Positions 9,276 to 57,502 of a stretch of DNA of 64,000 bases are shown here, in pieces. Position 1 is the stretch's first letter; every line of letters starts with the position of its first letter. The DNA lies in the IMG/VR virus record IMGVR_UViG_3300032783_000063, positions 37,306-101,305 of that record; one strand, given 5' to 3'. The DNA is from a virus. A program made the position numbers and the translations under genes. The notes under the pieces are model-generated. The model saw only the letters and a list, made by a program, of their open reading frames with translations. It ran no database searches and was not told the origin of the DNA.

Positions 9276-10832
9276 TCATGCCCTCATGTCGCCCCTCTGA
9301 GCGGTCAGGCAGCCTTGCGTACGGGCCCGCCGTCTGCGGCGGTGCTTACGTGTGCGCGGCGGCCCCAGGCCCCAGGCAGACGGCACCAGCGCGCCAGACG
9401 GCTCCGCGGCGCTCGGGAGTCGCGCGGCCTCTATGGAGTTAGGAGAGTTCACGGGCTGCTCCCTGACGGGTTGGCATATCTCCCGTGCTGCCACCGTTTG
9501 CGCCACGGCGGTAAAGCGATCCTTAATGTTACCTGCTGCGATTATGTCGGCGTGCCCTGACAATCCGCATCCGACACATTGGAACACGGCCCGGCTCGGC
9601 CGGTTCGCTGCGTCGACCAGCCCGCAACCGGGACACGTCTGCGACGTGTGCGGGGCCGGGACTTTCACCAGGGTCGTCTTGTAGGCAACGAACTGCTGGA
9701 GCTGATACCAGTTCCCGGCGAGGATCTCTCGGTTCAGCCCCGTCTTCTGTTTCACGTTCCGGCCCGGGGCGTCTTCGGTGCCTTTCGCTGATGCGGTCAT
9801 GGCGGACACGTCCAGGTTCTCCATCACCACGGTCGCGTATCTGGCCGCCAGCGCCCTGGAGGCCAGGTGAGCGCCTGCGGTGCGCTGCCTGGTCTCATGC
9901 TGCATCAGCTTCAGGTGCGCCATCTTGTCCCGCAGATACCTGCGCGAATGCTTCCAGCAATCACAATCGTGACCATCAGCGCCTGGCGGGGGGCAGTAGC
10001 CACGGAGCAGATGCGCGCGCCCATTCCGCTGGGTCCAGGTGTCGTGCCGACACGGGTTCAGCCGCCGTTTGCGGGCCATCGCAACCTGCAGCCGCCGTTT
10101 CCGCTCCTGCTGACCAGCAGACAAGCCAGGTGCGTCGTATGTTTCGCCATCCGACGTCATCGCCGTCACCGTCACGCCACGATCCACGCCCACCACCCCG
10201 GACGTCGCAGGCTGCCGCACCTCTGCAGTGTCATATTGGACAGTCGCCCAGTACCGGCCTGTGTCATCCACTCGCAGCGACGCGAACCCCACCAGCGTGT
10301 CCTCGGGCAGCACCCGGTGATAGCGGATCTTCACCAGGCCGATCGCACCGGGCACCTTCAACATGGCCCGGCCAGGACGGCCCGGCCGGATAACACCCGG
10401 CAGCGGACACCGCACCGAGCCCTCCTGCGTCTGCCAGTACAACGACCCGCCCTTATGAACCGACCGGAACCGAGGCGGACTGGACGGCTTGCCTTCCTTC
10501 AGCATCGTGAAATGCCGCGTCCACGACGCCGACAACTGCCGCAGGGCACCATGCAGCATCACCGACGGCACTATGGTGAATGGGTGGGTCTGGCCGTGAT
10601 GCCGAAACTCGCACCCCGCCTTGCGTGCTACCGACACCGCATAGCTGAGGCTCATGCACGACTCGACCCCGGCGTGATGCTTCCACCGGTCCAGCTGCGA
10701 CGCCACAGCCTCATTGAAGAACGCCGTCACCCCGGCGCGCTGCAAGGCGAATGTCTCAGCCTGGGCGGGCGATAACTCGGCGGCGTACACCTGGGCGCGC
10801 TTGTAACGCACCGGGACAACTAGCTGAGACAT
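9276..10832 (-). CDS. tnpB: TnpB-family RNA-guided nuclease (IS200/IS605- or IS607-type)
   Basis: A 518-residue protein with the TnpB RuvC triad: D217 in GVDRGV, E339 in VMENLDV and D429 in GHADIIAAGNI. The zinc ribbon CPGCG...CVGCG is at 400-422. TnpB proteins are RNA-guided DNA nucleases that cut the empty donor site and help retain the element. No tnpA transposase is adjacent, so the copy may be non-autonomous. An unusual Cys/His-rich insertion (about 259-295, including C261, H263, C280, H288, C290, C292) lies between RuvC I and II. The tail after residue 445 is Arg/Pro-rich and probably overlaps the omega RNA. Confidence 0.9.
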   Translation of the reverse strand: MSQLVVPVRYKRAQVYAAELSPAQAETFALQRAGVTAFFNEAVASQLDRWKHHAGVESCMSLSYAVSVARKAGCEFRHHGQTHPFTIVPSVMLHGALRQLSASWTRHFTMLKEGKPSSPPRFRSVHKGGSLYWQTQEGSVRCPLPGVIRPGRPGRAMLKVPGAIGLVKIRYHRVLPEDTLVGFASLRVDDTGRYWATVQYDTAEVRQPATSGVVGVDRGVTVTAMTSDGETYDAPGLSAGQQERKRRLQVAMARKRRLNPCRHDTWTQRNGRAHLLRGYCPPPGADGHDCDCWKHSRRYLRDKMAHLKLMQHETRQRTAGAHLASRALAARYATVVMENLDVSAMTASAKGTEDAPGRNVKQKTGLNREILAGNWYQLQQFVAYKTTLVKVPAPHTSQTCPGCGLVDAANRPSRAVFQCVGCGLSGHADIIAAGNIKDRFTAVAQTVAAREICQPVREQPVNSPNSIEAARLPSAAEPSGALVPSAWGLGPPRTRKHRRRRRARTQGCLTAQRGDMRA

Positions 10833-11102: not shown

Positions 11103-11657
11103 CTACCCGTCGATCGTGAACTCGTAGTCCAGCACCCACTGGGAGGCCGCCACAACATGCACGCACACCTCAACCGCCCGGCCTTCAGCAGTCCAGCCCA
11201 CGTGGAAGATCTCCGTCACGAACTGGTCAGGGTCCAAGCCGAGCGCGGTCGCCTCGGCCTCGGTGGGCCGCCGTGACCTCACCGCCTCGGTGATCCTGGT
11301 CTGCGCGTAGCCGAGCTCAGCAAACCGCGACACGATCCCGCCCGGCCCCGAGTCCTGGTCGACGAGCCGGGTGCCGTCTGCGATGTCAGTCGGGATAAAC
11401 GATGTGGCGAGCTGGACCGTGACCCCGTCCGCGGCCATGCGGCGACGACGGGCCACCACCGGCACGCCCTCGTGAATGCCCAGCACGCGGGCGACGTCTG
11501 CCGACGCGGGAACGCGGCTGACCTCGACTTCTGAGTGCGGTTCGAGGCCGAGGCTGCGGATCTCGGCGTCGAACGCGCCACGGCCGCCGTTGCGTTCGCG
11601 CGCCTGGCGGTTGTAGCGGGTTACTGCGTTGCGGTGGATGACTGGGATCGTGCGCAC
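11103..11657 (-). CDS. UTRA-domain protein lacking a DNA-binding domain
   Basis: GTG 11657 follows AAGGGAGCACA. The product (184 aa) begins directly with the linker seen after the winged helix of GntR/HutC regulators (RTIPVIHRNAVTRYNRQARERNGG) and continues as a UTRA ligand-binding/dimerisation fold. The HTH is absent. It lies downstream of a full-length GntR-UTRA gene and could modulate it by heterodimer formation; that is an inference. Alternatively it is a decayed paralogue. Confidence 0.65.
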   Translation of the reverse strand: MRTIPVIHRNAVTRYNRQARERNGGRGAFDAEIRSLGLEPHSEVEVSRVPASADVARVLGIHEGVPVVARRRRMAADGVTVQLATSFIPTDIADGTRLVDQDSGPGGIVSRFAELGYAQTRITEAVRSRRPTEAEATALGLDPDQFVTEIFHVGWTAEGRAVEVCVHVVAASQWVLDYEFTIDG

Positions 11658-11726: not shown

Positions 11727-12476
11727 CTACCCGACAGGCTCCGGGTCCACCGCGTAGTCGTAACTGACTACCTGGTCAGGGGGCAGCACGTGCTCACCGT
11801 AGATCAGCACACCAGCATCGTCGGACCATACGTTCGTCGTGGCCAGGATCGGGGTGCCGATCGGAATACGCAGCGCACCCGCCTCTCGCGCATCTGCCGC
11901 CCGGCCGCGGAGATGATCCCGGCCGTGCGTGACACGCCGCCCCGTCACCGACTCAACCACACGAACAGTGCCGTCCGCCAGCGGCTCCGGTGATGTGAGC
12001 TCAGCTGCGAGCGGGCTGGAGCCGATCGGCGGCACCCAGTCCACCGACAGCATCTGCGGCCGGGCCCTCTTGTAAGTGACCTCTTCACGTCGGTTGACCA
12101 CCGTGCCGATCGGGATGCCCAGCAGTTCAGCCACATAGTTGGGTGCGGTGACCGTCTCTGCGGCGTTGACGATGATCCGTTCGCCGTTGGTGGTGGAGCG
12201 GCGCGGCCCGCCGCCTGTAATACGGTCACGGGCAGACTTGGTGATGATCTCCTTGTCGGCGACAAAAGACCCTTGGGGACTGGTCCAGATGGCGCCTTCT
12301 ACCTGAAGCTGGCTGATGGCCCGGGCGGCCGTGGCTACTGAGATGCCCCAGTCGGTGGCGATCTGGCTGATGGGCGGGAGCTTCTGCCCGGGAACAAGGT
12401 CACCATCGAGGATCGCGGTGCGGTAGTGATCCGCCACCTGTACGTAAACAGGTAGTGGCCGGTCGGCGCGTGGCAT
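11727..12476 (-). CDS. GntR family regulator, HutC/UTRA type (KorSA-like)
   Basis: ATG 12476 follows GGAGGCGGACCTTA. The 249-residue protein has an N-terminal winged helix (PLPVYVQVADHYRTAILDGDLVPGQKLPPISQIATDWGISVATAARAISQLQVEG, residues about 7-62) and a C-terminal UTRA domain. Regulators of this type (KorSA of pSAM2, TraR/KorA of Streptomyces plasmids) repress transfer and replication genes. Divergent orientation from the 12631 operon, with a palindrome between, fits that role. Confidence 0.8.
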   Translation of the reverse strand: MPRADRPLPVYVQVADHYRTAILDGDLVPGQKLPPISQIATDWGISVATAARAISQLQVEGAIWTSPQGSFVADKEIITKSARDRITGGGPRRSTTNGERIIVNAAETVTAPNYVAELLGIPIGTVVNRREEVTYKRARPQMLSVDWVPPIGSSPLAAELTSPEPLADGTVRVVESVTGRRVTHGRDHLRGRAADAREAGALRIPIGTPILATTNVWSDDAGVLIYGEHVLPPDQVVSYDYAVDPEPVG

Positions 12477-13645: not shown

Positions 13646-13938
13646 CCGCCTGGGCTGTCCTCGGCGCCATGTTCGTATTCCTGTGCCTCGTCTTCGCCGC
13701 CGGCGAATGGGCGTTCGACATCGTCGGTGTGCGCCGCCGGTATTACGCGTGGCGGCTGGACCGGTGGGAGGCATCCCGGCAGGCCGCCTACGACCGGGCC
13801 GTCGCCGACCAGGAAGAAGAGGAACGCTACGTCCGCGCCGCCGCGGCCGCCGTGCAGGACGAAGCCTGGGACGACATGGTGGCCAAGGGCCTCGACCTCC
13901 TCGAGGCGTGCGCCAATAACGAGAGGACGGACTGGTGA
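13642..13938 (+). CDS. membrane protein with acidic tail (98 aa)
   Basis: A transmembrane helix at residues 3-22 is followed by a charged helix (RQAAYDRAVADQEEEERYVRAA). The RQAAY motif and the DDM/DDVEAF-like C-terminus echo the preceding gene, suggesting duplication. Probably part of the element's transfer membrane components, by context only. Confidence 0.55.
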   Translation: MTAWAVLGAMFVFLCLVFAAGEWAFDIVGVRRRYYAWRLDRWEASRQAAYDRAVADQEEEERYVRAAAAAVQDEAWDDMVAKGLDLLEACANNERTDW

Positions 13939-14387
13939 TGCACACCGTATCGACGTACAGCCCGCAGCTTGTGCTGGATGTCACTGACATGGCCTGGGCG
14001 GATGACGGCGACTGTCAGTACGCCGACCCGGAACTGTGGTTCCCCGCGCCGGGCGAACGGGCCGAAGAAGCGAAATCCATCTGCGCGCAGTGCCCGGTGA
14101 AAGCGGAGTGCCTGGCGTATGCGATGCCCCGCAGCGAGCTGGAGGGCATCTGGGGCGGGACGTCGCAACGTCAGCGTGCCCGCATGCGGGTCAAGGCCCA
14201 GCTGGCGCCCAGGAAGCACGCTGAGGCGGCGGCGCTGGCCGCGGAAGGCATGAAACGGTGCACCCGCTGCCGCCACCCGAAGCCCTATGCGGAGTTTTCG
14301 CTGGATTCCCGTTCACGGGACGGGCGGCGGCCGGATTGCAAGGCGTGCCTGTCGGCGCGCGGGTGGCGGAAGGAGAAGGCGGCATGA
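13938..14387 (+). CDS. WhiB-type iron-sulfur regulator fused to a C-terminal zinc ribbon
   Basis: About 149 residues. WhiB signature: Cys near 26, then C49-x2-C52-x5-C58 (SICAQCPVKAEC) and the GIWGGT turn, expected to bind a 4Fe-4S cluster and contact sigma factor region 4. Beyond the normal end is CTRCRHPKPYAEF...DCKACLSARGW, a second four-Cys module as seen in HNH-like zinc ribbons. GTG 13935 is an alternative start. Inference: it controls transfer genes. Confidence 0.85.
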   Translation: MHTVSTYSPQLVLDVTDMAWADDGDCQYADPELWFPAPGERAEEAKSICAQCPVKAECLAYAMPRSELEGIWGGTSQRQRARMRVKAQLAPRKHAEAAALAAEGMKRCTRCRHPKPYAEFSLDSRSRDGRRPDCKACLSARGWRKEKAA

Positions 14388-14962: not shown

Positions 14963-15180
14963 CTACGACCACTGTTTTGCAGCCGGGGCGGGCGCACCGG
15001 AACGTCAGGCGCGCTGTCCGGCTGTGGCGCAAGCACAAGGCTGCGGCGGCCGTGATGGCCGCTGCGGCGGCCGCTGAGGTTGTCCTGTGGGCGGCGTGGA
15101 CTGTGGTCGCCCTGGCCCTGGCCGTGGCTGTGGCGGGCGTGTCGCGGGCCGCCGCTTACATCAGGGGACGGCGGTCATGA
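14959..15180 (+). CDS. small membrane protein (73 aa)
   Basis: Residues about 28-62 are a long Ala/Val hydrophobic stretch (one or two helices), with a basic N-terminus and RGRRS at the end. ATGA overlaps on both sides place it directly before the coupling ATPase, with which it may associate. Confidence 0.6.
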   Translation: MTTTTVLQPGRAHRNVRRAVRLWRKHKAAAAVMAAAAAAEVVLWAAWTVVALALAVAVAGVSRAAAYIRGRRS

Positions 15181-16880
15181 ACATCATCACCACTTCCCAT
15201 ATCAAGGCCCAGGTTCGTGACAGTCATGCGGCGCGGCGGACAGCATGGGCGGGGGGTGTCATCCTGGCAGCGGGTGTCATACAGGCGGCACACCGTGTCA
15301 TGCACCTGCCAGGATGGCCGTATGCGCTGATGGCCGCCGCCATCCTGGCCTACCACTATGCGCGGGCCGGGTGGGAACTGGTGGAGTTCCGCCGGACCGG
15401 CGGCCGGGCCGCGCGACGTCGGCGGCGGAAGTATCAGGGCGCTGCCACATTGCGCGACATTCACAAGCACTTGTCACCGGCTGCGGTCACTAAGCGGGCG
15501 GCGGTGACCCGGCCGTCGCTGGACGGGAAGGTAACGCTGGCCGACACGGGTGTCTTCCTCGGCCGCACCCTCCGCGCCAGACGCCGGCTGTGCGGCACCC
15601 ACGAGGACTCGTATCTGATCGTCGGCCCGCCCAGGACGGGAAAGACGGGATGGCTGGCGGGTGTCGTACAGGACGCTCCCGGTGCGTGTGTCGCCACCTC
15701 GAGCCGGGTTGACGTCCTCGTTCACACTGCCCCTGTCCGTGCTGCGAAAGGCCCGGCGTGGGTGCTGAACCCCGGCGGGGACGGGTCCATCCCCACCACG
15801 CTCGCCTGGTCGCCGCTCGACGGCTGCTACACCGCCGCCGGGGCAGTGGAACGCGCCGGCTACCTGATGGCCGCCGCGCCCAAAGACTCGTCCGGGAAAG
15901 ACGCCTGGTGGGAAGGCAAAGGCCACGAGCTCCTCCGCCTCGCCCTGCACGCCGCCGCAGTCGACGGCGGCACCATCCGCGACGCAGCCCAGTGGGTCCG
16001 CGACCCAGCCGACCCGGGCTTCGCCGCCGCGCTAGCCCTCCCCGACGCGGCCCCCGGCTGGGCCGCCGAGCATGCGCGGCTCATCGAATCCGCGGGGGAG
16101 ATGCTGTCCGGCATCGTCGCCTCCGCCGCGGCGGCGCTGGCGTGGCTGGCCGACCCGGCCATGGCACAGGTCGCCGACCCGGACCCTGGCACCGAGTTCT
16201 CCGCCGAGGAGTTCATCCTGTCGCGCGGCACCCTCTACATGATCGGCGCCGACAAGCCCCACTCCAGTTACGCACCCTATTTCGCGGCACTGACAGCGGA
16301 GATTTTCGAGGCAGCGAAACGGGTCGCATCGAACATGCGGAACGGCAGGCTTGACCCGCCGCTGACACTGGCCCTGGACGAGGCGGCGATCATCTGCCCC
16401 GTCCCGCTGGACCGGTGGACGTCCGAGGCCGGCGGTCACGGTGTCACCGTCCTGGCAGGCGTGCAGGCCATGTCACAGCTGCGCGCCCGGTGGGGCGACG
16501 AAGGCGGCCGTACCATCTTCTCCAACTCCACGGTGAAGATGATTTTCGGCGGGCTGACAGACCACGCTGATCTGGAGGCACTGTCAGCGGTGTGCGGTGA
16601 CCGTGACACGTGGCACAAGGTCAAGAGCGACGGCGGGTCGACCAGGCAGCCCGGCAGCGAGCGGCTGTTCCCGCCGGAACGGATCCGGCTGCTGCCCGCC
16701 TGGCATGCCCTGATCCTGCACCGGTCCACGCGGCCGGTGGTAGCCCGTGTCACCCCCGTGTGGCAGCGGAAGGACTATCTGCCGCTGCCCGAGGCCACCT
16801 GCCCGCCGCCCGCTGACATGCCGGCGGTCACCGACGACATCCAGCTCGCACTGCCGCCCGGCACCCAGCCGGCGGCCTGA
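15177..16880 (+). CDS. VirD4/TraG-like type IV coupling ATPase
   Basis: 567 residues. Two N-terminal membrane segments (about 24-40 and 47-66), Walker A at 150-157 (GPPRTGKT) and Walker B at 396-402 (LTLALDEAA). The following GGHGVTVLAGVQAMSQLRARWG matches the TraG/TraD/VirD4 C-terminal (TraM-recognition) region. Such hexameric ATPases bring DNA substrates to conjugation machinery. Having this protein beside an FtsK/TraB translocase is notable, since Streptomyces-type transfer normally needs TraB alone. Start overlaps the previous stop. Confidence 0.85.
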   Translation: MNIITTSHIKAQVRDSHAARRTAWAGGVILAAGVIQAAHRVMHLPGWPYALMAAAILAYHYARAGWELVEFRRTGGRAARRRRRKYQGAATLRDIHKHLSPAAVTKRAAVTRPSLDGKVTLADTGVFLGRTLRARRRLCGTHEDSYLIVGPPRTGKTGWLAGVVQDAPGACVATSSRVDVLVHTAPVRAAKGPAWVLNPGGDGSIPTTLAWSPLDGCYTAAGAVERAGYLMAAAPKDSSGKDAWWEGKGHELLRLALHAAAVDGGTIRDAAQWVRDPADPGFAAALALPDAAPGWAAEHARLIESAGEMLSGIVASAAAALAWLADPAMAQVADPDPGTEFSAEEFILSRGTLYMIGADKPHSSYAPYFAALTAEIFEAAKRVASNMRNGRLDPPLTLALDEAAIICPVPLDRWTSEAGGHGVTVLAGVQAMSQLRARWGDEGGRTIFSNSTVKMIFGGLTDHADLEALSAVCGDRDTWHKVKSDGGSTRQPGSERLFPPERIRLLPAWHALILHRSTRPVVARVTPVWQRKDYLPLPEATCPPPADMPAVTDDIQLALPPGTQPAA

Positions 16881-18911: not shown

Positions 18912-20843
18912 ATGAGTGCCAGCAAGAAAGAAACCGCCGCGATGGACGCCATCGTCATGACCATCCGGTTCCTCTGGCGCTGGCACTCCGGCTACCCCCT
19001 CCACGGCCCCCACGGCAAATTCCGCACCGACGCCACCTGGTCAAAAGACGCAAAAAACGTCCTCCACCCGATCCCAGGCGGATACGCGCCCCGGTGGCAT
19101 CACCTCCGCTGGCGCCGCCGCGGCCTCTACCGCTCCGCCGCCACCTGGACTGTCATCGGCGCCATCTACGGGTACCTCACCGCACCCGCCGTCACCCTGG
19201 CCATCATCGCTGCCGCCACTGCGGCAGCAGCCGGATACGGCACCTGGAAAGCCATCCGCGTCATCCGCACCTGGCAGTCCGAACGACACGAAATCAGGCC
19301 GCTGAAAGCCCGCCTCAAGCACCTCACCGGCTGGGAACCCGTCAGCATCACCATCGTCCGCGAAGACAACCCCGGCGGCAAGGACTGGCGGGAACTCAAG
19401 ATCGTAGACGTCGAGATCGAATGGCCAGTCGCCGCGCAGCTCGGCCCCCGCGACCAGCCCCTCATCCTCGAGGGCCTCACCGACCGCCTAGCCATCGAAG
19501 CCCCCGAACAGGCCGGGTCAAAATTCAAAGGACGCAACCGGGTTGTCCGATACGTCCAGTCCGAGCCGCCTCCCGGCCTGATCGGCTGGGATCACGTCGC
19601 TGAAGCCGTCGCCGGCGCCGACCGGAACGAGCTCGTGTTCGGCCTCGGCCGGCCCGAGGTGACGGGCAACAGGAAAACCTACGCGATCGTCAAGGCATCC
19701 CTGTCCACCGATAGCCCGCACCTCGCGTGCTCCGGCGGAACAGGCGGCGGGAAAACCAACCTGGGCGCGCTCATCATCCTCCAGGAACTGCACCGCGGCG
19801 CGATCCTCTTCAACATCGACCCCCGCTGGGACTCCCACCTGTGGTCTGAGGGCCTGCCCAACGTCATCTCCGCCCATTCCATCCCCGACGTTCACAACGC
19901 CCTGGCCTGGCTCGGCGAAGAACTCCACCGCCGCTACCAGACCGTGTTCTACGCTTCCCGCGGCACCGGCCGCGCCAGGCCCAAGTGGGCCCGCATCCTC
20001 GTCAACTGCGAAGAACTCAACTTCGGCATGCAGGACCTCAAGGACTACTGGACCGAGTGCCGCGCCGGCGACAAGAGCCTGCCGAAACGGTCCCCCGCGC
20101 TGAAAGCCCTCCAGGCCCTGTCCTGCGCCGGGCGGGCCGTCGACATCCACATCATGCTCTGGGCACAGATGCTCACCGTCGAATGCACCGGAGTGAAGGA
20201 CTCCACCGTCCGCGCCAACGCCGGAATCAAAGCCATGGTCCGCTACGACACCAACAACTGGAACATGCAGATCGGCAAACGGTTCCCCATGCCCCCCGAG
20301 CCCACCGAGCCCGGCCGCATACAACTGGTAACCGCCCGCGGTGTCCAGGAAACCCAGGTCCCCTACCTGTGCCTCGACCAGGACAAGGGTGACGAAGAAG
20401 GCGACAAGGCAGTCGCATGGGCTCGCGAGTACGCCGTCAGCGGCCAAGTCGCAGCACTGCCCACAGGCAAGCACGGAATCCCCCAGAGACTGTGGCCGGT
20501 ACCCATCGCCGAACCCGTCCTAGGACAACTGCAACTTTCGCAAAACGCGGACTCAACCCCAGGTCAGAACCCTGAGACGCCTAGGACAGTCTCAACTGAG
20601 ACACCCGCGATCGAAGCTCCGGTGACCCTTTCCGAGGCATGCGACGAGGAAACAGGGTTCCTCACGTGCGGTCTGATCGCCGCCCGCCGCGCCAGCACCC
20701 GGCCCGGATTCCCCCCGTCATGCGGACACAGGGGCGCAGCGAAGCTGTACTGGCCTGCCGACCTCCGCGCCAAGCTCGCGCGCCCCGACGACACCAGCCA
20801 GATAGCGGACAGTGACGACGATCAGCAGGACGGCGCGGCATGA
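18912..20843 (+). CDS. FtsK/SpoIIIE-type DNA translocase (TraB-like)
   Basis: 643 residues. Transmembrane segment(s) at about 78-108, Walker A SGGTGGGKT at 274-282, Walker B-like ILVNCEELNF at about 362-371, and a hydrophilic C-terminus that may carry the DNA-recognition domain. In Streptomyces plasmids and integrative elements a single protein of this kind (TraB/TraSA) moves double-stranded DNA between hyphae, recognising short direct repeats (clt). A non-coding repeat block lies about 1 kb downstream. AGGAGCCCTGC precedes ATG. Confidence 0.9.
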   Translation: MSASKKETAAMDAIVMTIRFLWRWHSGYPLHGPHGKFRTDATWSKDAKNVLHPIPGGYAPRWHHLRWRRRGLYRSAATWTVIGAIYGYLTAPAVTLAIIAAATAAAAGYGTWKAIRVIRTWQSERHEIRPLKARLKHLTGWEPVSITIVREDNPGGKDWRELKIVDVEIEWPVAAQLGPRDQPLILEGLTDRLAIEAPEQAGSKFKGRNRVVRYVQSEPPPGLIGWDHVAEAVAGADRNELVFGLGRPEVTGNRKTYAIVKASLSTDSPHLACSGGTGGGKTNLGALIILQELHRGAILFNIDPRWDSHLWSEGLPNVISAHSIPDVHNALAWLGEELHRRYQTVFYASRGTGRARPKWARILVNCEELNFGMQDLKDYWTECRAGDKSLPKRSPALKALQALSCAGRAVDIHIMLWAQMLTVECTGVKDSTVRANAGIKAMVRYDTNNWNMQIGKRFPMPPEPTEPGRIQLVTARGVQETQVPYLCLDQDKGDEEGDKAVAWAREYAVSGQVAALPTGKHGIPQRLWPVPIAEPVLGQLQLSQNADSTPGQNPETPRTVSTETPAIEAPVTLSEACDEETGFLTCGLIAARRASTRPGFPPSCGHRGAAKLYWPADLRAKLARPDDTSQIADSDDDQQDGAA

Positions 20844-27841: not shown

Positions 27842-28453
27842 ATGAGCCCAAGACCACCACCTAAACGTAGATACCCTATCGAACCACTCACAGCAGGCGA
27901 AGTTAAGCTTCTGATGCGACAGTTCTCAACTACGACCGCAACGGGTATCAGGAACAGAGCACTCATAACAGTGATGTACCGCTCAGGACTGCGCATCTCG
28001 GAAGCGCTCGCGCTGAAGCCAGCCGACGTTGACCCGAAACAGGGATCAATCAGGGTCCTGCATGGCAAGGGCGACAAGAGCCGCGTCGTCTCCATTGACG
28101 ACGACGCGCTCGCTGTCGTACAGCGCTGGATGGACCGCCGCAAGATCGCCCGCATCAGAAACGGCTACCTGTTCTGCACCCTCCAGGGCGCAGACATCAA
28201 AGGCAGCTACGTCAGGGCAATGCTGAAGAGACAAGCGGAGAGGGCAGGGATCACCAAGCGGATCCACCCCCACGGCCTGAGACATTCCCACGCCGCCGAG
28301 CTCGTCGCCGAAGGCGTACCCGTCAACGTGATCCAGCAGCAACTTGGGCACGCCCACCTATCCACCACTGACGTCTACCTGCGGCACGTAGCCCCGGCAG
28401 ACGTGATCGCCATCGGCCGCAACCGCACATGGAACCTGGAGGACGAAGCGTGA
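27842..28453 (+). CDS. short tyrosine recombinase (integrase/XerD-like)
   Basis: 203 residues with the complete catalytic set: R51 (SGLRISEAL), K76/K79 (GKGDKS), H144-x2-R147 (HPHGLRHSH), H170 (LGHAHLST) and nucleophile Y179 (VYLRH). The usual N-terminal core-binding domain is nearly absent, so it is about half normal length. It would catalyse site-specific recombination, such as integration or dimer resolution. The 27698-27841 spacer is AT-richer than average and may hold its promoter or an att site, but no repeat was found to define one. Confidence 0.85.
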   Translation: MSPRPPPKRRYPIEPLTAGEVKLLMRQFSTTTATGIRNRALITVMYRSGLRISEALALKPADVDPKQGSIRVLHGKGDKSRVVSIDDDALAVVQRWMDRRKIARIRNGYLFCTLQGADIKGSYVRAMLKRQAERAGITKRIHPHGLRHSHAAELVAEGVPVNVIQQQLGHAHLSTTDVYLRHVAPADVIAIGRNRTWNLEDEA

Positions 28454-30427: not shown

Positions 30428-31276
30428 ATGAGTGATGTCCCGTTCCCGGATCAGGTGAGCGGCGTGGGGCCGATGGACGGCGGGACGCTGGACGGGACCG
30501 TTCGGGCGCCCAGGCTGCCCGCAGCGGGCAGGTCGCAGCCGGTGGACATTTCCCGGCTGCACCCGCACCCGGATAACATCCGCGAGGATCTCGGGGACCT
30601 GGAGGACATGGCGGCGTCGATCCGCGTGCACGGGATCCTGCAGGCGCTCGTGGTCGTCCCGCATCCGTCCCGGGCAGGTCATTACCATGTTCTCGCCGGG
30701 CACCGGCGCCTGGCTGCGGCCAGGCTGGCGGGGCTGGCGGACGTGCCGGTCACTGTCCGCCAGGCTGACATCGGCGTGTCGAAAGCCGTGCAGGTGATGC
30801 TGATCGAGAACTGTCAGCGTGAGGATCTGGGCCCGGTGGAGAAGGCCGAGGCGATGGGGAAGCTCGTCTCGGGGGGCATGTCGCAGGTGCAGATCGCGAA
30901 GGCTATCGGGATGTCTGATACGACGGTGTCCACGTATCTGGCTCTGCTGGAGCTAGACCGGGCGACGCAGCGGCGGGTGGCTGCGGGGATGGTCCCGGTG
31001 ATGGATGCGGTGCGGGCGGTGCGGAAGACCCGGGCGGCGAGCCGGTCGCGGGACGGCGGGGCGGACCGTAACAAGGCGATGGCGCTGACGTGGGAGCCGG
31101 ATCATTTCACTGACCGGCATCCGCTGGCCCGGAAGGCGAGAGCGATGTGTGACGCACGGGAGCATAACGCGCGGCGGCGGCTTGGCCGGGTGGCGTGCGG
31201 GGAGTGCTGGGAAACGGTGATCCGCCGTGATGAGCAGCTGGTTGTCCGGGCGGGGATGCTGGAGGGCGGCCTTTAG
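30428..31276 (+). CDS. ParB/Spo0J-family DNA-binding protein
   Basis: 282 residues. ParB N-terminal domain with HPHPDNIRED, GHRRLAAARLAGL and VQVMLIENCQREDLGPVEKAEAM (about 45-145), then an HTH (SQVQIAKAIGMSDTTVSTYLALLEL). The C-terminus adds C...H...CGEC, unlike chromosomal ParB dimerisation domains. No parA is adjacent. It could act in partition or KorB-like regulation. Three TGTCRTACA sites lie within 1.4 kb upstream and a parS-like site lies at 49090. GGAGGCGCCGGC precedes ATG. Confidence 0.8.
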   Translation: MSDVPFPDQVSGVGPMDGGTLDGTVRAPRLPAAGRSQPVDISRLHPHPDNIREDLGDLEDMAASIRVHGILQALVVVPHPSRAGHYHVLAGHRRLAAARLAGLADVPVTVRQADIGVSKAVQVMLIENCQREDLGPVEKAEAMGKLVSGGMSQVQIAKAIGMSDTTVSTYLALLELDRATQRRVAAGMVPVMDAVRAVRKTRAASRSRDGGADRNKAMALTWEPDHFTDRHPLARKARAMCDAREHNARRRLGRVACGECWETVIRRDEQLVVRAGMLEGGL

Positions 31277-38720: not shown

Positions 38721-39602
38721 ATGGCGAACAGCGTTTTGGACTGGGTCTGGGCAAACTCCCAGTCCCGGCATGCTGCGCGCCTGGTGATGCTCTCTCTGGC
38801 TGACAGCACCAAGACTCCCGGCGGCTGGACGTGGCCGAGTGTCGCATCGCTCATGCAGCGCACAGGGCTCAAGGAGCGGGCCGTGCAGACCGCGCTCATC
38901 GAACTGGCCAGGATGGGCGAGCTAGCCGTCGAGTACAACGCCGGGCCGAAAGGCTGCAACCGCTACAAGGTCACCTGTCAGACCCCCGCAGAATCTGCAC
39001 CCCCCGCAGAATCTGCACCCCCGCAAACTTTGCGGGGTAACGATTTGTCCGAATCGGTATCTTCGCAGGTCGGCGACCCTACCCCCGCAGAATCTGCACC
39101 CCCCGCAGAATCTGCACCCCCGCAAACTTTGCGGCTGACCCCCGCAGAATCTGCACCCGGAACCGTAAGAGAACCGAACTCTCCTACGGAGAGTTCAACA
39201 ACATCTTGTGCAAATACCGCCGCCGTCCTCTTCGGCACGCCCGCCGGGCCACCGAAGACCAGACGCGGCCGTAGGACGACACCGACAGGTGACCCCCGCT
39301 TCGATGAGTGGTATCAGGCGTACCCGGTTCACAGATCACGCGGCGATGCTGAGAAAGCGTGGGCCGAAGCACTCGCTGACGAAGCAGACCCCGCCCAGCT
39401 CACTGCAGCGGCGAGGGCGTATCACGACGACCCGGACGTCTTGCGTGGCTACGCAAAACTCCCGGCCACCTGGCTGCGGAAGAAGTGCTGGCTAGACGAG
39501 CCCCCGCCACCGCCGCGCGTCCCGTTCGCCAGCAACGGACACGGACCTGCAGGCAAAACAACTAACTACACCGATGAGGAGTACCAGCGTGGCTGGACCT
39601 GA
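38721..39602 (+). CDS. replication initiator with HTH (phage O/DnaD-like), contains candidate origin
   Basis: 293 residues. N-terminal winged helix as in phage replisome organisers (WANSQSRHAARLVMLSLADSTKTPGGWTWPSVASLMQRTGLKERAVQTALIELARMGELAVEY, about 11-75). The central PAESAPP/PQTLR repeats are encoded by the palindrome cluster listed separately. The C-terminal FDEWYQAYPVHRSRGDAEKAWAEAL...YAKLPATWLRK is typical of replication proteins that hand over to a DnaC/DnaB pair, which follows directly. Confidence 0.75.
   Translation: MANSVLDWVWANSQSRHAARLVMLSLADSTKTPGGWTWPSVASLMQRTGLKERAVQTALIELARMGELAVEYNAGPKGCNRYKVTCQTPAESAPPAESAPPQTLRGNDLSESVSSQVGDPTPAESAPPAESAPPQTLRLTPAESAPGTVREPNSPTESSTTSCANTAAVLFGTPAGPPKTRRGRRTTPTGDPRFDEWYQAYPVHRSRGDAEKAWAEALADEADPAQLTAAARAYHDDPDVLRGYAKLPATWLRKKCWLDEPPPPPRVPFASNGHGPAGKTTNYTDEEYQRGWT
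38988..39196. other. candidate replication origin inside the initiator gene
   Basis: Five copies of the palindrome GCAGAATCTGC (38988, 39006, 39087, 39105, 39144; 11 bp each), two copies of CCGCAAACTTTGCGG (39021-39035, 39120-39134) and the inverted repeat GAACTCTCC-TAC-GGAGAGTTC (39176-39196), with AT-richer DNA at 39037-39066. Phage lambda and relatives keep their origin iterons within the O gene in the same way. Confidence 0.6.
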
Positions 39603-47646: not shown

Positions 47647-48438
47647 CTAGGCGGACGGCAGGTACAGGGTCAGTCCCGGCGGCATGTGCGTGCCCGGCGG
47701 GACCTGGCCCAGGAAGATCTGGTTCACGTAGTCGCCGAAGGCTGCGTTCTGGGCCGGGGTGCCGGACAGGGCGGTCTGCCGGATGATCGCCGCAGGGGTG
47801 ATGTGATGCTCGGCGGCGAGCTCGGCGAGGGAGTCCATGCCGATGGTGACGTGGGCGACGACAACATGCGGCGGCGGCGTGCCTGAGCGGATGGCCAGCG
47901 CCCGGGCGATGATCTCCGTCCGCTGTGCCATGCGGACCCTGCCGGGACAGTCGTGGCCGCCCCAGGCTGCGCCGCCGTCCACGTGGAAGAGGATCCCGCG
48001 GCCGCCGTCCGGGTCGTCCGCCGGCGCGAGGGGCCAGCCGTCGAACGCGCTCATGGCCTCGAACACCTGGGCGGAGGCGGTGAGCTGCGCGTCAGTCATC
48101 GGATTGGCCGGGTTGCCCTGGTCCTCGTGCTCGACGCCGCGGTAATGGGGGTTGCCGGCGCACTGGGTCCACGCCATCCAGTCGTGCCCCAGGGTGCCGT
48201 ACTGGTGAATCCCGCCCGTTACGGAGATGCTGAAGTAAGCGCTGGCCTGGGCCGCGGGGTTGTTGAACTCTTCTATGACGTTGTGCTCGTAGCCGACCTC
48301 GGTGTGGATGACCCCGCCCCAGGCTGTCCCGAAGCCGCCCGGCGTGCCGTTCGGCGTGGGCATGGGGTCGTTCCAGGTGATGGCCGCCGGGCCGCGGAGC
48401 AGGCCGTCATCGCCGATCGTGAGCCTGCCTGCAGGCAT
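47647..48438 (-). CDS. endolysin, N-acetylmuramoyl-L-alanine amidase
   Basis: 263 residues. Amidase_2/PGRP fold: GVIHTEVG with zinc ligand H45, the central HxxYRGVEHED region, and AWGGHDCPGRVR with the second His and Cys ligands (about 161-163). The C-terminus (TIGMDSLAELAAEHHITPAAIIRQTALSG...YVNQIFLGQVPPGTHMPPGLTLYLP) is LysM-like wall binding. It cleaves peptidoglycan at lysis. Confidence 0.85.
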   Translation of the reverse strand: MPAGRLTIGDDGLLRGPAAITWNDPMPTPNGTPGGFGTAWGGVIHTEVGYEHNVIEEFNNPAAQASAYFSISVTGGIHQYGTLGHDWMAWTQCAGNPHYRGVEHEDQGNPANPMTDAQLTASAQVFEAMSAFDGWPLAPADDPDGGRGILFHVDGGAAWGGHDCPGRVRMAQRTEIIARALAIRSGTPPPHVVVAHVTIGMDSLAELAAEHHITPAAIIRQTALSGTPAQNAAFGDYVNQIFLGQVPPGTHMPPGLTLYLPSA

Positions 48439-48548: not shown

Positions 48549-49070
48549 CTACTTGAGCTTGAGAAACAGGATGATCACGGAGATGACGGCGATGACCAGG
48601 GAGATGATCGCGACCAGCTGGGCGTTCGCCCCGGATTTCCCCCGTGACTTGTCCGCCTCGGCCTCGAGCTTGTCGATGCGGTCTTTCACCGACGCGGTGG
48701 CCTGGGCGAGGAGACGTTCCCAGTTGCCGCGGTCGGCGTTGATGCGCCGGTCGATCGAATCCTGGGCGGCTTCGAACATGTCGCGGGAGACCATCCGGGC
48801 GGCCTGGTCGGAGATCTGCAGCCGGAACTCGTTCATGCCGTCGAGCCGCCGCTCGAGAGCCGTGTCGGCGGCGGCGGTCTGTTCTTTCCCGTCGAGGAAC
48901 CGCTGTTCGACTTCGCGCTGGAAGGACGCGAACCGCCGGTCGATTTCATCCTGGATGTTCTGGAACCGGATGTCAGCGGCGTGTTCGTGGGATGCCATCT
49001 GAGCGTCGATGGTCTGGCGGGCCAGGACGAGCTGCGCGGCGATTGCTTCGGCCGGGTCGTGCCGGGGCAT
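48549..49070 (-). CDS. coiled-coil protein with C-terminal membrane anchor
   Basis: ATG 49070 follows GCGGGAGCAGTTC. 173 residues: a long charged coiled coil (IDAQMASHEHAADIRFQNIQDEIDRRFASFQREVEQRF...MVSRDMFEAAQDSIDRRINADRGNWERLLAQATASVKDRIDKLEAE) and a terminal helix LVAIISLVIAVISVIILFLKLK. Similar proteins sit in actinophage lysis cassettes, where a role in membrane disruption has been suggested. Confidence 0.65.
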   Translation of the reverse strand: MPRHDPAEAIAAQLVLARQTIDAQMASHEHAADIRFQNIQDEIDRRFASFQREVEQRFLDGKEQTAAADTALERRLDGMNEFRLQISDQAARMVSRDMFEAAQDSIDRRINADRGNWERLLAQATASVKDRIDKLEAEADKSRGKSGANAQLVAIISLVIAVISVIILFLKLK

Positions 49071-49089: not shown

Positions 49090-49105
49090 TGTTTCACGTG
49101 AAACC
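49090..49105. other. parS-like ParB-binding site
   Basis: TGTTTCACGTGAAACC contains the perfect 14-bp GTTTCACGTGAAAC recognised by actinobacterial ParB. It lies in the only sizeable gap (49071-49226) of the late module. It may recruit host or element ParB. Confidence 0.75.
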
Positions 49106-49226: not shown

Positions 49227-49790
49227 TCAGGTTTCCCACCCTGCCGCGGTGTTCCAGTCCCACCAGTCCGACGGCTGGATCCGCTCGCTCGTGCCAGCAG
49301 GCCGCGGCAGGCCCAGCGACCGGTACACCCACGCCGCCGCGGACGAGCACACCAGATGCCCCGGCGCCTGATGCGACTTGTCCGCCCAGCCCCACCACAG
49401 ATCCAGCAGCACCGCCAGCGACCCCAGGTGCAGGTCGTCGAGGCCGTCGGCGAAAATCCCGCCCGCCCAGTCATAGCCCACGCCGAGGAGGCCGGCTGCG
49501 ACGGTGGCGATGGTGACCCGCTGCGCCTCGGTGCGCGGCTGGGCGGAGTTGGAGTTCCCGAACTTCGCGAACGGCCCGCGGGTGTACTTGGCCATGTCCA
49601 CCCAGCCGACCCCGCCGGGGCGCCCCTCGATCCCCCACCAGCGTTTCCGGATGTCCCGGTGGTGGACGATCGCGACATGGGAGGCGAGGTTCGATTTCCC
49701 GCCGAGGGCCTCGGTGAACCGGATGACATCAGCGGCCCATCCGGATGTCCTGACGGCGATCACGTCCCCGACGGCGAGCTCGCCGATCAA
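49227..49790 (-). CDS. permuted NlpC/P60 (papain-like) family protein
   Basis: 187 residues. GDVIAVRTSGWAADVIRFTEALGGKSNLASHVAIVHH places a catalytic-type His in SHVAIV near residue 38, and GHLVCSSAAAWVYRSLGL supplies the Cys after it, the circularly permuted order of YiiX-like/lecithin-retinol-acyltransferase-type amidases. It could trim wall peptides or act in the tail tip. Confidence 0.65.
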   Translation of the reverse strand: MIGELAVGDVIAVRTSGWAADVIRFTEALGGKSNLASHVAIVHHRDIRKRWWGIEGRPGGVGWVDMAKYTRGPFAKFGNSNSAQPRTEAQRVTIATVAAGLLGVGYDWAGGIFADGLDDLHLGSLAVLLDLWWGWADKSHQAPGHLVCSSAAAWVYRSLGLPRPAGTSERIQPSDWWDWNTAAGWET

Positions 49791-54046: not shown

Positions 54047-57000
54047 CTACCGGTACATGGCGGAATAGCCGGCAGTGCGTGCCGCGCCGCCAAGTGCCCC
54101 CGTGATCCCCGCCGCCGTTGATCCCGGAGCCGCTGCGGCCACGCTGATCAGGGCCGACAGCAGGCCGCACACGTCATCCAGCGACGCCCCGTCCCCCCCG
54201 CCATCGGCGGGGGTGAGGTGCTCGGGTTTCCCGGTGTTGTTCTTCACCAGCGACAGGCCGGGCGGCAGCGTGCCGCCCTTGTCCATCAGGTACGGCTTGT
54301 ACGCCCCCGACTCGTACGTCGTCCACGGCGAGAACCCGTCCGCCGCATGGAACTTGTAAACGGCGGCGCGGGCGTTGTTCATCGGGATCAGCAGGGCCTG
54401 GTTCACGCCCACCGACGGGACGGAATTACCAGGCGTTATCTGCCAAAGGCCCCAGCCGGTCGTCGAGTACGGCTGGCCCTGCTGGACAGCGGACGGCCGG
54501 CGGGCGGATTCCGCGCCGGTGATGGCCTGGGCGATGTTCGCGTACTGGCCGCCGGGGCCGCCCGCAGCCACCCACAGTTTCGCGACGTCTTGCGCCGACA
54601 TGGCCCCCGCCGGGACGGCCCCGCCGCCGCCGCCGAACCCGCCGGGCGGGGTGCCGAACCCGACCGCCCCGCCGAGCCCGGCGACCTGCGTGCCCAGGCC
54701 GGGTGCTTCTGCGTTGACCATCTGCGACGGGGAGATGACGATGCCGACATGGCCGGGGGCGGAGACGGAGCCGCCGTCACCGGAGCCGACGAAGAACGCC
54801 AGGCCGCCGGTGGTCGGGCCTTTCTTCCGGTTCACCCAGTTCCACTGGTCCTGCGATGTCCGCGGTGGGTACAGGTGAAAATGGTTATAAACGTACTCAA
54901 CCATGCCCGAGCAGTCCCAGCCAGATGGGGATGTACCACCCCAGACATAGGGGACCTTGCCCACGAACGACTGGGCGAACTCCGCGATGGCGCTGCCGCT
55001 GCCGGTCGCCGCCCGCGCCGCCGCGATCCCCGCGAGGACGGCGTTCTTCAGCGCTTCAGCGACCTGGTTGTTCTGCGCCTTGTCTTCTTTCACCGTCCAG
55101 TTGCCCAGCCCCGGCGGGCTGGAGCCGACGTAACTGCCGGTGAGGAACCCGGGCACGCCGATCGCCTTGAACAGGCCGGCCAGGCCCTTCGTCCGCTGCT
55201 TGTCGACGACGGTCTCGCCGGGCTCGAGCAGCGCCGGGATGATGTCCCCGCCGCCGAACCCGGGGATTTTCCCGCCTGTCGCGCCGGTCCAGATGCCGGT
55301 GGCGCGGCTGGCGTTCCCCGGCCCGGGCGACCCGGGGAAGATCTGCTTGATCGACCAGTTGCCCGCAGCGGTGTAAGTCATGTCGGTGTAGACATGCTTG
55401 GGGACCTTGCCGTAGGCCGTGGTCAGGTCGTCGACCAGCCGTCTCGCGGTCTGGGCGTTGATCCCGGCGTTTTCCAGGTCGGTGATTACCTGCTGCCGGG
55501 CTTTCTTCGCCGCATCGGAGTCAGCCCCGTTTCTCTTGATGGTCTGGTTGTATTTGTCCAGGTCCGCGTGGCCCTGCCGGGCGTTCCCGGCTGCGGACTC
55601 GATGTCGTAGATGAGCTGCAGCCGGGCTTTGTGTGCCTCTTCGGAGTGGGATCCGTTCTGCTGCACGGCGGTCGTGTACCGGTTGACGTCCGTACGCGCA
55701 GTGTTGGCGTCGACCCCGGCCTGCTCCAGGTCGGACAGCAGCGACTTCCTGGCTGCCTTCGACGCGGCGGACCCGGCCCAGCCTTCGCTGAGCGCGGTGG
55801 TGTACTTGTCCAGCGCCGCCCGGGCAGTGTCGGCGCCTTTCGCCTGGTTCTGGAACTCCTTGAGGATGGCCGTCGTCTGCTTCGCCGCAGGCTCCTTGCT
55901 TTTCTCCAGGGCCTGCGTCCACTCGTTAAGCTTGCCGAGCACCCCGTTGAACGCATTGTCAGCGCTGGCCCTGAAGCCGTCAAACGCCTTCGCGGCGCTT
56001 CTGAGTTTCGGCCCGATCCCCGGCACCCATCCGAACACTTTCGCCAGGGAGTCGATGACCGAACTGACCAGCAGCAGGATCGCATCCATGATGAACTTGG
56101 CGCCCAGGACGACGCCTCCCGCCACGCCGAGCATGACGATCCCGATGTCCTTGATGATGTTCCGGAACTTACTTGACGTGTCATACGCCTTGTAAATCCC
56201 GAACGCCAGCGCCGCGATCCCGATGACGAGAAGAGCGACCGGGTCGGTCAGTATGGCGATTGCAGCTATCGCAAGGTTCAGCCCCTTGACCGCGACCGCT
56301 ACCGCGCCGATCGCCAGGGCGGTCTGCGCGATGCCCTTCCAGTGCTCCGACAGGGCCGCCATCAGCTTGATCACATACGGCATCAGCTTGACGCCGATCG
56401 CGATCGCCAGCGACTGGGCCCGCGCCTCCAGTTCCTTCCACTTCTGCGCCGGGGTCTGCTGCGTTCTCTTCCACGCATCCGCGAACCCGTCCGCGGCCTT
56501 CGTCAGAGCCGGGTACTTCGACTGAAGCCGGTCCAACTGCCCGGCCAGGATCGCGATCCCAGTCCCGGCTTTCTTCCCGAAAATCTGCGTGATCACATCA
56601 CCCTGCTGCTTGGCGGAAATCCCCGCCTCCCGCATGTGCGTGACCAGTTGCTCCACCGCAGGCAGCAGGCCCCCGGACTGCATCGTCTTCGCGAACGACG
56701 CCGCGTTCAGCCCGATCGACTGGAGTTCCTTCGCCCCGGCCTTTGCCGGCACCGCCAGAGCCTGCACCGCCATCCGCAGTTCCGTGCCCGCCTGCGCGCC
56801 GCGGATGTTGTTGTCGCCGAACACCGCCAGCGCCGCGCCCACATCCTTGATGGACAGGCCGTAGCCCTTCACCACAGCCACCATGCCCGTGCCGAACGCA
56901 TCCGCGAGGTCCTGCATCTTCATGTCGCCGACGCCGACGGTCGCGTTCAGCACGCCCATCGCCTGCTGCATGTTCTGCACGCCGGGGATCCCCGCTGCCA

Positions 57001-57502
57001 CCGAAGCGGTCAGCGCATTCGTCACATCCTCGAGGTTCGCCCCGCCGACCGCCGCGCCCTCCGCAGCGGTCTTCACGATCCCCAGCGCCTTCGCGGACGT
57101 GATCCCCAGCGACTCGAAGTTCGACTCGACGTGATACAGCGACACCGCGAGAGAATCCGGGGAGAACCCCACCTTCCCCGCCAGGTCCAGCACCCCCTGC
57201 CTCAGCCCGGCGAGCTTCGGCGCCGCGACCCCCGCCTGCGTGGACAGGCGGGTCATCTGCGCGTCGAACGTCGCCGCCATCTTCACCGACGCCACCGCTG
57301 CACCGGCCATCGCCAGCGAGATCATCCCCGAGACCTTGACCAGCTTCGAGTTCTGGAAGCCCTTAGCCCACGAATCCCCTGCCTTCGCGCCCGCCGCCCC
57401 GGCCCCGGCGGCGCCCTTAGCGGTCTCTGCCTGGATTTCCTTGCCCAGGTTCGCGCCGATGGCCTCGATTTTCACGAAGGCGGTCGCCAGCACAGACGGC
57501 AC
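54047..57502 (-). CDS. tape measure protein with NlpC/P60 and lytic transglycosylase domains
   Basis: 1151 residues. N-terminal TMP region (about 50-330; MTRLSTQAGVAAPKLAGLRQGVLDLA), hydrophobic helices about 395-440 and 455-490, and coiled repeats of YTTA...KAARKSLL-type. Residues 837-927 form an NlpC/P60 peptidase (C864 in WDCSG, H918 in GHVGIV). Residues about 968-1060 form a lysozyme-like transglycosylase (GAESARRP, GWGLWQITPG). It sets tail length and would open the wall during DNA injection. Confidence 0.92.
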   Translation of the reverse strand: MPSVLATAFVKIEAIGANLGKEIQAETAKGAAGAGAAGAKAGDSWAKGFQNSKLVKVSGMISLAMAGAAVASVKMAATFDAQMTRLSTQAGVAAPKLAGLRQGVLDLAGKVGFSPDSLAVSLYHVESNFESLGITSAKALGIVKTAAEGAAVGGANLEDVTNALTASVAAGIPGVQNMQQAMGVLNATVGVGDMKMQDLADAFGTGMVAVVKGYGLSIKDVGAALAVFGDNNIRGAQAGTELRMAVQALAVPAKAGAKELQSIGLNAASFAKTMQSGGLLPAVEQLVTHMREAGISAKQQGDVITQIFGKKAGTGIAILAGQLDRLQSKYPALTKAADGFADAWKRTQQTPAQKWKELEARAQSLAIAIGVKLMPYVIKLMAALSEHWKGIAQTALAIGAVAVAVKGLNLAIAAIAILTDPVALLVIGIAALAFGIYKAYDTSSKFRNIIKDIGIVMLGVAGGVVLGAKFIMDAILLLVSSVIDSLAKVFGWVPGIGPKLRSAAKAFDGFRASADNAFNGVLGKLNEWTQALEKSKEPAAKQTTAILKEFQNQAKGADTARAALDKYTTALSEGWAGSAASKAARKSLLSDLEQAGVDANTARTDVNRYTTAVQQNGSHSEEAHKARLQLIYDIESAAGNARQGHADLDKYNQTIKRNGADSDAAKKARQQVITDLENAGINAQTARRLVDDLTTAYGKVPKHVYTDMTYTAAGNWSIKQIFPGSPGPGNASRATGIWTGATGGKIPGFGGGDIIPALLEPGETVVDKQRTKGLAGLFKAIGVPGFLTGSYVGSSPPGLGNWTVKEDKAQNNQVAEALKNAVLAGIAAARAATGSGSAIAEFAQSFVGKVPYVWGGTSPSGWDCSGMVEYVYNHFHLYPPRTSQDQWNWVNRKKGPTTGGLAFFVGSGDGGSVSAPGHVGIVISPSQMVNAEAPGLGTQVAGLGGAVGFGTPPGGFGGGGGAVPAGAMSAQDVAKLWVAAGGPGGQYANIAQAITGAESARRPSAVQQGQPYSTTGWGLWQITPGNSVPSVGVNQALLIPMNNARAAVYKFHAADGFSPWTTYESGAYKPYLMDKGGTLPPGLSLVKNNTGKPEHLTPADGGGDGASLDDVCGLLSALISVAAAAPGSTAAGITGALGGAARTAGYSAMYR

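What the first reader, a model, noticed from the sequence alone, without database searches (positions are those of the whole stretch)
49090..49105. Perfect parS core inside the phage late module
GTTTCACGTGAAAC, the ParB-binding core of actinobacterial chromosomes, lies in the only large gap among tail/lysis genes. Together with a ParB-like gene at 30428 it suggests the element uses ParB-mediated segregation, its own or the host's, as a phage-plasmid or prophage might.
Basis: partly seen in the sequence, partly recalled or inferred. Interest (0 to 1): 0.6.

Follow-up and report, generated by a model that had tools for sequence, protein, structure and literature searches.

The report
Host-type centromere site in a phage
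A complete 101-kb soil phage, probably of an actinobacterium, carries one perfect copy of the DNA site that bacteria use to grip and separate their chromosomes (parS); the phage's own ParB-like protein does not look able to read it, so it most likely borrows the host's segregation protein, as phage phi29 does and as many other phages appear to do.

Summary
The site is real: GTTTCACGTGAAAC at 49091-49104, the only copy with 0-1 mismatches in the 101,305-base record; chance expectation 1e-4 to 2.5e-4. It lies 20 nt upstream of the ATG of a probable lysis-cassette gene. It is not in 'the only large gap'.

It is most likely a genuine host-type parS. Its flank pattern occurs at real actinobacterial chromosomal parS. 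In high-GC viral contigs the core is at least about 7 times commoner than matched control palindromes. Named phages of many families carry 17-20 bp parS matches (212 records; mirrored control 0), and in one Microbacterium phage group the site is fully conserved inside a diverging gene.

The site is not conserved in capsid relatives (1 exact hit in 81 records, different context).

Best reading: the phage uses the host's ParB. The precedent is phi29, with reported Spo0J-dependent spore entrapment and four near-parS sites found here. Binding and function are inferred. The record is closed by a 127-bp terminal repeat and carries plasmid-type genes, so 'phage-plasmid' stays plausible.

The parts
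49091..49104 (.). parS core GTTTCACGTGAAAC, perfect 14-bp palindrome
   Evidence: Exact match, only one in the record; expected 1e-4 to 2.5e-4; 19-nt string ATGTTTCACGTGAAACCAG is identical to a chromosomal copy on an Actinomadura contig, L367
49071..49226 (.). 156-bp intergenic gap holding the site; no sigma-70-type promoter or terminator matched there
48549..49070 (-). Gene just downstream of the site: 173 aa, long charged region plus one C-terminal hydrophobic segment (holin/spanin-like by position only); GGGAG before the ATG; site 20 nt upstream of the ATG
   Evidence: no Pfam match and only a weak unnamed PHROG match
47647..48438 (-). Endolysin, N-acetylmuramoyl-L-alanine amidase (Amidase_2)
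49227..49790 (-). Gene upstream of the site; weak match to phrog_1128, possibly NlpC/P60-like (my reading of the sequence)
   Evidence: 60% identical relative in L210 without a parS
54047..57502 (-). Tape measure protein; fixes the late, minus-strand module
30428..31276 (+). ParB-like protein (282 aa): CTPase motifs kept (GHRRLAA, ENCQRED), parS-reading residues changed, no ParA-binding motif
38721..39602 (+). Lambda-O-like replication initiator with iterons (5x CCGCAGAATCTGC, 2x CCGCAAACTTTGC) inside the gene; probable origin
27842..28453 (+). Short tyrosine recombinase (203 aa, Xer-like)
15177..16880 (+). VirD4/TraG-like conjugative coupling protein of actinobacterial plasmid type

Best explanation
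The 14-mer is a genuine host-type parS carried in cis by the phage. Shown: the exact sequence; its rarity by chance; flanks within the range of actinobacterial chromosomal parS; the widespread and, in one group, selectively conserved presence of the same site in other phages; and that the phage's own ParB-like protein lacks the residues that read it. Inferred: the host's chromosomal ParB (a CTP-loaded clamp) nucleates there, slides onto flanking phage DNA and, through host ParA and SMC, ties the phage genome to host chromosome positioning and segregation. This would keep a circular phage-plasmid or carrier-state genome in dividing or sporulating cells, as reported for phi29 and Spo0J. A cis-acting 'handle' fits better than control of one particular gene, because parS lies next to quite different genes in different phages.
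For: Rarity. Viral sites at GC >=0.6: at least 28, against 2 and 4 for the controls. Flank classes none/one/both T..A: high-GC viral 5/12/11, actinobacterial chromosomes 8/14/13. Named phages: 212 records match the 20-mer at 17-20 bp, reversed control 0. In Quhwahvirus/Metamorphoovirus gene 67, 16/16 parS columns are invariant against 32% of flanking columns. Phonegingi has the same layout as here: parS, then ribosome-binding site and ATG of a late gene. phi29 has four TGTTTCACGTGGAACA copies; 100 shuffled palindromes gave at most 1 hit each; Spo0J-dependent spore entrapment of phi29 is reported in PMC9437464 citing Meijer 2005. Own ParB excluded as likely reader. Record closed by a 127-bp terminal repeat, with plasmid genes, recombinase and lambda-O-type origin.
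Against: Only one site, with one consensus-mismatched flank base. Not conserved in capsid relatives: one exact hit in 81 records (2.24 Mb), in a different context. The host is unknown and no prophage relative was found. Many carriers look virulent and some are tiny ssDNA phages, where segregation is not obviously useful. The INPHARED count includes duplicate accessions and unannotated Listeria LM 4-11-1/4-14-1 contigs that may be host DNA. No binding data.
Confidence: 0.55

Rival explanations
1. Chance: the 14-mer arose by drift and nothing binds it usefully.
For: Absent from nearly all relatives; single copy; flank not the full consensus; many windows and motifs were read, so a rare match will sometimes turn up; 20 perfect 14-bp palindromes in the record.
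Against: Expected 1e-4 to 2.5e-4 per record; in high-GC viral contigs chance accounts for at most about 2-4 of 28 or more such cores.
Confidence: 0.17
2. Regulatory: host ParB loaded 20 nt upstream of the first lysis-cassette gene acts as roadblock or silencer, delaying lysis while the host segregates its chromosome.
For: Position in the 5' region of the lysis cassette; the same layout before a late gene in Phonegingi; increased ParB level represses promoters next to parS3/parS4 in P. aeruginosa (title of PMC5521831).
Against: Across phages parS sits by unrelated genes or inside coding sequence; no promoter found in the gap.
Confidence: 0.15
3. Decoy: the phage site, multiplied by replication, titrates host ParB/SMC off the chromosome and disturbs the host cell cycle.
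For: Works for virulent and small phages that need no segregation; some carry several sites (e.g. Bacillus phage BcoS-136 with 4 in about 1 kb).
Against: A single site here, against about 16 reported in S. venezuelae (PMC12511625).
Confidence: 0.08
4. The phage's own ParB-like protein at 30428 is the reader, making a self-contained ParB-parS pair.
For: Same genome; CTPase motifs kept; ParB and HTH domains.
Against: K171M, R173D, N178T, G201M, R204V in the parS-contact set; no ParA, no ParA-binding motif; site 18 kb away; the parS-carrying relative G018 has no ParB_N hit.
Confidence: 0.05

Closest known systems
phi29-family Bacillus phages exploiting host ParB (Spo0J) for spore entrapment
   Same: Host-type parS in a phage genome with no ParA/ParB pair of its own; phi29 has four one-mismatch sites and B103 one perfect and one near site; Spo0J reported to be involved (PMC9437464).
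   Different: Here one perfect site, an actinobacterial-type 101-kb genome with plasmid-like genes; no functional data; host sporulation unknown.
SGI1 hijacking the parABS of its IncC helper plasmid (PMC10954446, abstract and title)
   Same: A mobile element stabilised by another replicon's partition system.
   Different: The partition system belongs to a plasmid, not to the host chromosome; not a phage.
Extrachromosomal mycobacterial prophages (PMC7157519, abstract only)
   Same: Actinobacterial phages maintained as plasmids.
   Different: From general knowledge they bring their own parABS with own centromere; here the site is the chromosomal type and there is no ParA.
Actinobacterial chromosomal parS
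   Same: Identical 14-bp core; the 19-nt extended string occurs on an Actinomadura contig (L367).
   Different: Chromosomal sites are clustered near oriC; here a single site in a phage late module.

Membership tests
Chromosomal-type parS site | 14-bp core GTTTCACGTGAAAC | tested here: met
   Exact
Chromosomal-type parS site | T..A outer bases of the 16-mer | tested here: inconclusive
   T present, A replaced by C; 14 of 35 actinobacterial chromosomal copies also have only one of the two
Chromosomal-type parS site | Bound by ParB | not testable with these tools
   needs gel-shift, BLI or ChIP
Self-encoded ParABS partition system | ParA-type ATPase | tested here: not met
   PF13614 absent from record; control genomes 14/14
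Self-encoded ParABS partition system | ParB able to read this parS | tested here: not met
   5 of 8 contact residues changed, by alignment only
Self-encoded ParABS partition system | LG-K/R-GL ParA-binding motif in ParB | tested here: not met
   Absent from P0001 sequence; motif definition from PMC12704722
Phage exploiting host ParB (phi29-like) | Host-type parS in a phage genome among phage genes | tested here: met
Phage exploiting host ParB (phi29-like) | Host ParB required for carriage of phage DNA | not testable with these tools
   no host, no experiment
Phage-plasmid | Circular or circularly permuted genome with phage structural genes | tested here: met
   127-bp exact terminal repeat; capsid, portal, terminase, tape measure
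Phage-plasmid | Plasmid-type replication or partition genes | tested here: inconclusive
   Plasmid-type coupling protein, but replication genes are lambda-O-type phage genes and no ParA

The most novel reading that the evidence does not exclude
Carrying the host's own centromere site is a general phage strategy, evolved many times (dsDNA tailed phages of actinobacteria, bacilli, lactobacilli and roseobacters, and ssDNA micro- and inoviruses), by which phage DNA hitchhikes on or manipulates host ParB/SMC; this phage, with conjugation-type genes and a ParB-like protein of other specificity, is one case.
Probability: 0.5. Interest if true: 0.8.

Novelty: new member of a known kind. Interest (0 to 1): 0.52.

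Why it matters
If host ParB loads on phage DNA, then chromosome segregation is a host function that phages widely exploit, which would explain how phages without ParAB or a full integrase could persist in dividing or sporulating cells. It makes a concrete prediction (parS mutation lowers retention or spore carriage) that can be tested in cultured Microbacterium, Gordonia, Arthrobacter or Bacillus phages. Outside phi29 I found no report of it in the searched open-access library; that is no proof of absence.

Tried and rejected
Own ParB as reader: rejected on contact residues. Conservation at the same place in relatives: tested in 81 records, not found. RNA hairpin or terminator in the gap: fold no better than shuffles (z -0.66), no Rfam match. 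Promoter: none matched. Relatives via the gene after the site: none in viral contigs; a 26%-identical homologue in G003 without a site. Host through prophage relatives of the capsid: none. Host DNA contamination: rejected, because the site lies among late genes of a record closed by a terminal repeat. The Caulobacter ParB typed for one search was in part from memory and is not relied on; the residue comparison rests. The iteron array at 38.98-39.16 kb looked like a centromere, but lies inside a lambda-O-like initiator gene and is better read as the origin.

Full report
What is there. GTTTCACGTGAAAC occurs once, at 49091-49104, and nowhere else with up to one mismatch in the 101,305-base virus record that holds the window. 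Record-specific Markov models expect 0.75e-4 to 2.5e-4 copies per record. The record ends in a 127-bp exact terminal repeat, so it is probably a complete, circular or circularly permuted genome. Terminase, portal and capsid lie on the part left of the window; tape measure and endolysin are in the window; the late genes run on the minus strand across the junction. The site is in a 156-bp gap between 49227-49790 and 48549-49070. The latter gene is best started at ATG 49070 with GGGAG before it, so the site is 20 nt upstream of the start codon. The gap is not the only large one; gaps of 248, 158 and 353 bp are in the same module.

Is it more than chance? Seventeen parS contigs had several copies, none of the control contigs did. 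Of 142 distinct viral sites, 88 had T before and A after the core, where unbiased flanks would give about 9. If flanks were unbiased at chance sites, the 8 sites with neither base imply about 14 chance sites at most among 142; at GC >=0.6 the classes are 5/12/11, which leaves roughly 80% of one-sided sites such as this one as real (my calculation). High-GC control sites numbered 2 and 4 against at least 28 for parS. Actinobacterial chromosomal copies have the same spread, 8/14/13, and one on an Actinomadura contig shares the 19-nt string ATGTTTCACGTGAAACCAG (contigs).

Other phages. A 20-mer parS query matched 212 of 50,697 phage records at 17-20 bp (a few with one mismatch); its mirror matched none. 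Carriers include Microbacterium, Gordonia, Arthrobacter, Clavibacter, Bacillus, Lactobacillus, Enterococcus, Butyrivibrio and Roseobacter phages, microviruses and inoviruses. Duplicated accessions inflate the number, and the Listeria LM contigs may be host DNA. Sites were read in 17 regions; many lie 10-60 nt upstream of a start codon, others inside genes. In Phonegingi the order parS, ribosome-binding site, ATG of the tail assembly chaperone is like the layout here. In Quhwahvirus/Metamorphoovirus gene 67 the site is invariant (16/16 columns) where only 32% of neighbouring columns are, a clear sign of selection; Gillianvirus and Woesvirus alignments were too conserved around the site to add to this. 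Gordonia phage Woes has two sites, each at the centre of a 30-36 bp perfect palindrome with different arms. phi29 has four copies of TGTTTCACGTGGAACA, one mismatch from consensus, which fits the reported role of Spo0J in spore entrapment of its genome (PMC9437464 citing Meijer 2005; the original paper was not available).

Relatives of this phage. The site is absent from 80 of 81 records found mostly through the capsid (2.24 Mb; many are fragments); the exact copy in G018 (210 kb) is itself unlikely by chance (expected 0.0055 in all relatives together) but lies among other genes. The relative L210, with a 60% identical neighbour gene, has no site. The site is therefore a lineage-specific gain, as expected if gains recur, or chance.

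Which ParB? The gene at 30428-31276 is a ParB/KorB-type protein with the CTPase motifs. Aligned with Caulobacter ParB, the parS contacts Q162, G170 and S172 are kept, but K171, R173, N178, G201 and R204 are M, D, T, M and V (contact list from PMC7383237). It has no LG-K/R-GL motif (definition in PMC12704722) and the record has no ParA. It is thus unlikely to read this site. Streptomyces plasmid SCP1 ParBs likewise have specificities distinct from the chromosomal ParB (PMC13245405).

Lifestyle. The middle of the genome holds a VirD4-like coupling protein matching 581 plasmid records, mostly actinobacterial, and no phage record, GntR/UTRA regulators and a WhiB factor, a short Xer-like recombinase, a TnpB and a lambda-O-type initiator with iterons, helicase loader and DnaB. 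Among 20 capsid-relative records only this one has the coupling protein or a ParB_N domain. WhiB, the plasmid matches and Streptomyces-phage endolysin relatives point to an actinobacterial host, but no host was identified.

Judgement. A real host-type parS: about 0.8. Function through host ParB as a segregation or positioning handle: about 0.55 in all, inferred. Control of the lysis cassette, titration of ParB and chance remain open.

Noticed in passing
window 15177-16880 (+), also 18912-20843 (+): VirD4/TraG-like coupling protein (and a weakly TraD-like neighbour) of actinobacterial plasmid type inside a phage genome; 581 plasmid records match and none of 50,697 phage records; absent from 19 capsid-relative records. 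A phage with conjugation-type genes.
   Followed up: partly
whole record, ends of C1: 127-bp exact direct terminal repeat: the 101-kb record is probably a complete circular or circularly permuted genome.
   Followed up: yes
window 38983-39158 (+): Iteron array (CCGCAGAATCTGC x5, CCGCAAACTTTGC x2, 9 matches against 0.02 expected) inside a lambda-O-like initiator gene 38721-39602, followed by DnaC-like loader and DnaB.
   Followed up: yes
window 30428-31276 (+): Lone ParB-like CTPase-type protein with altered reading helix and no ParA; its own DNA site is unknown.
   Followed up: partly
window 11103-11657 and 11727-12476 (-); 13938-14387 (+); 9276-10811 (-): GntR/UTRA regulators, a WhiB factor with an endonuclease VII-like tail, and a TnpB RNA-guided nuclease relative.
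   Followed up: no
L231 2082 and 2503 (Gordonia phage Woes 71020 and 71441): Two parS cores, each centred in a long perfect palindrome (36 and 30 bp) with unrelated arms, in successive intergenic gaps.
   Followed up: partly
L449, L232, L450-L452 (Quhwahvirus/Metamorphoovirus gene 67): parS perfectly conserved inside the gene of an HTH DNA-binding protein whose surrounding sequence diverges with indels on both sides.
   Followed up: yes
L318 1504, 2338, 2374, 2494 (Bacillus phage vB_BcoS-136): Four parS cores within about 1 kb of a 160-kb phage.
   Followed up: no
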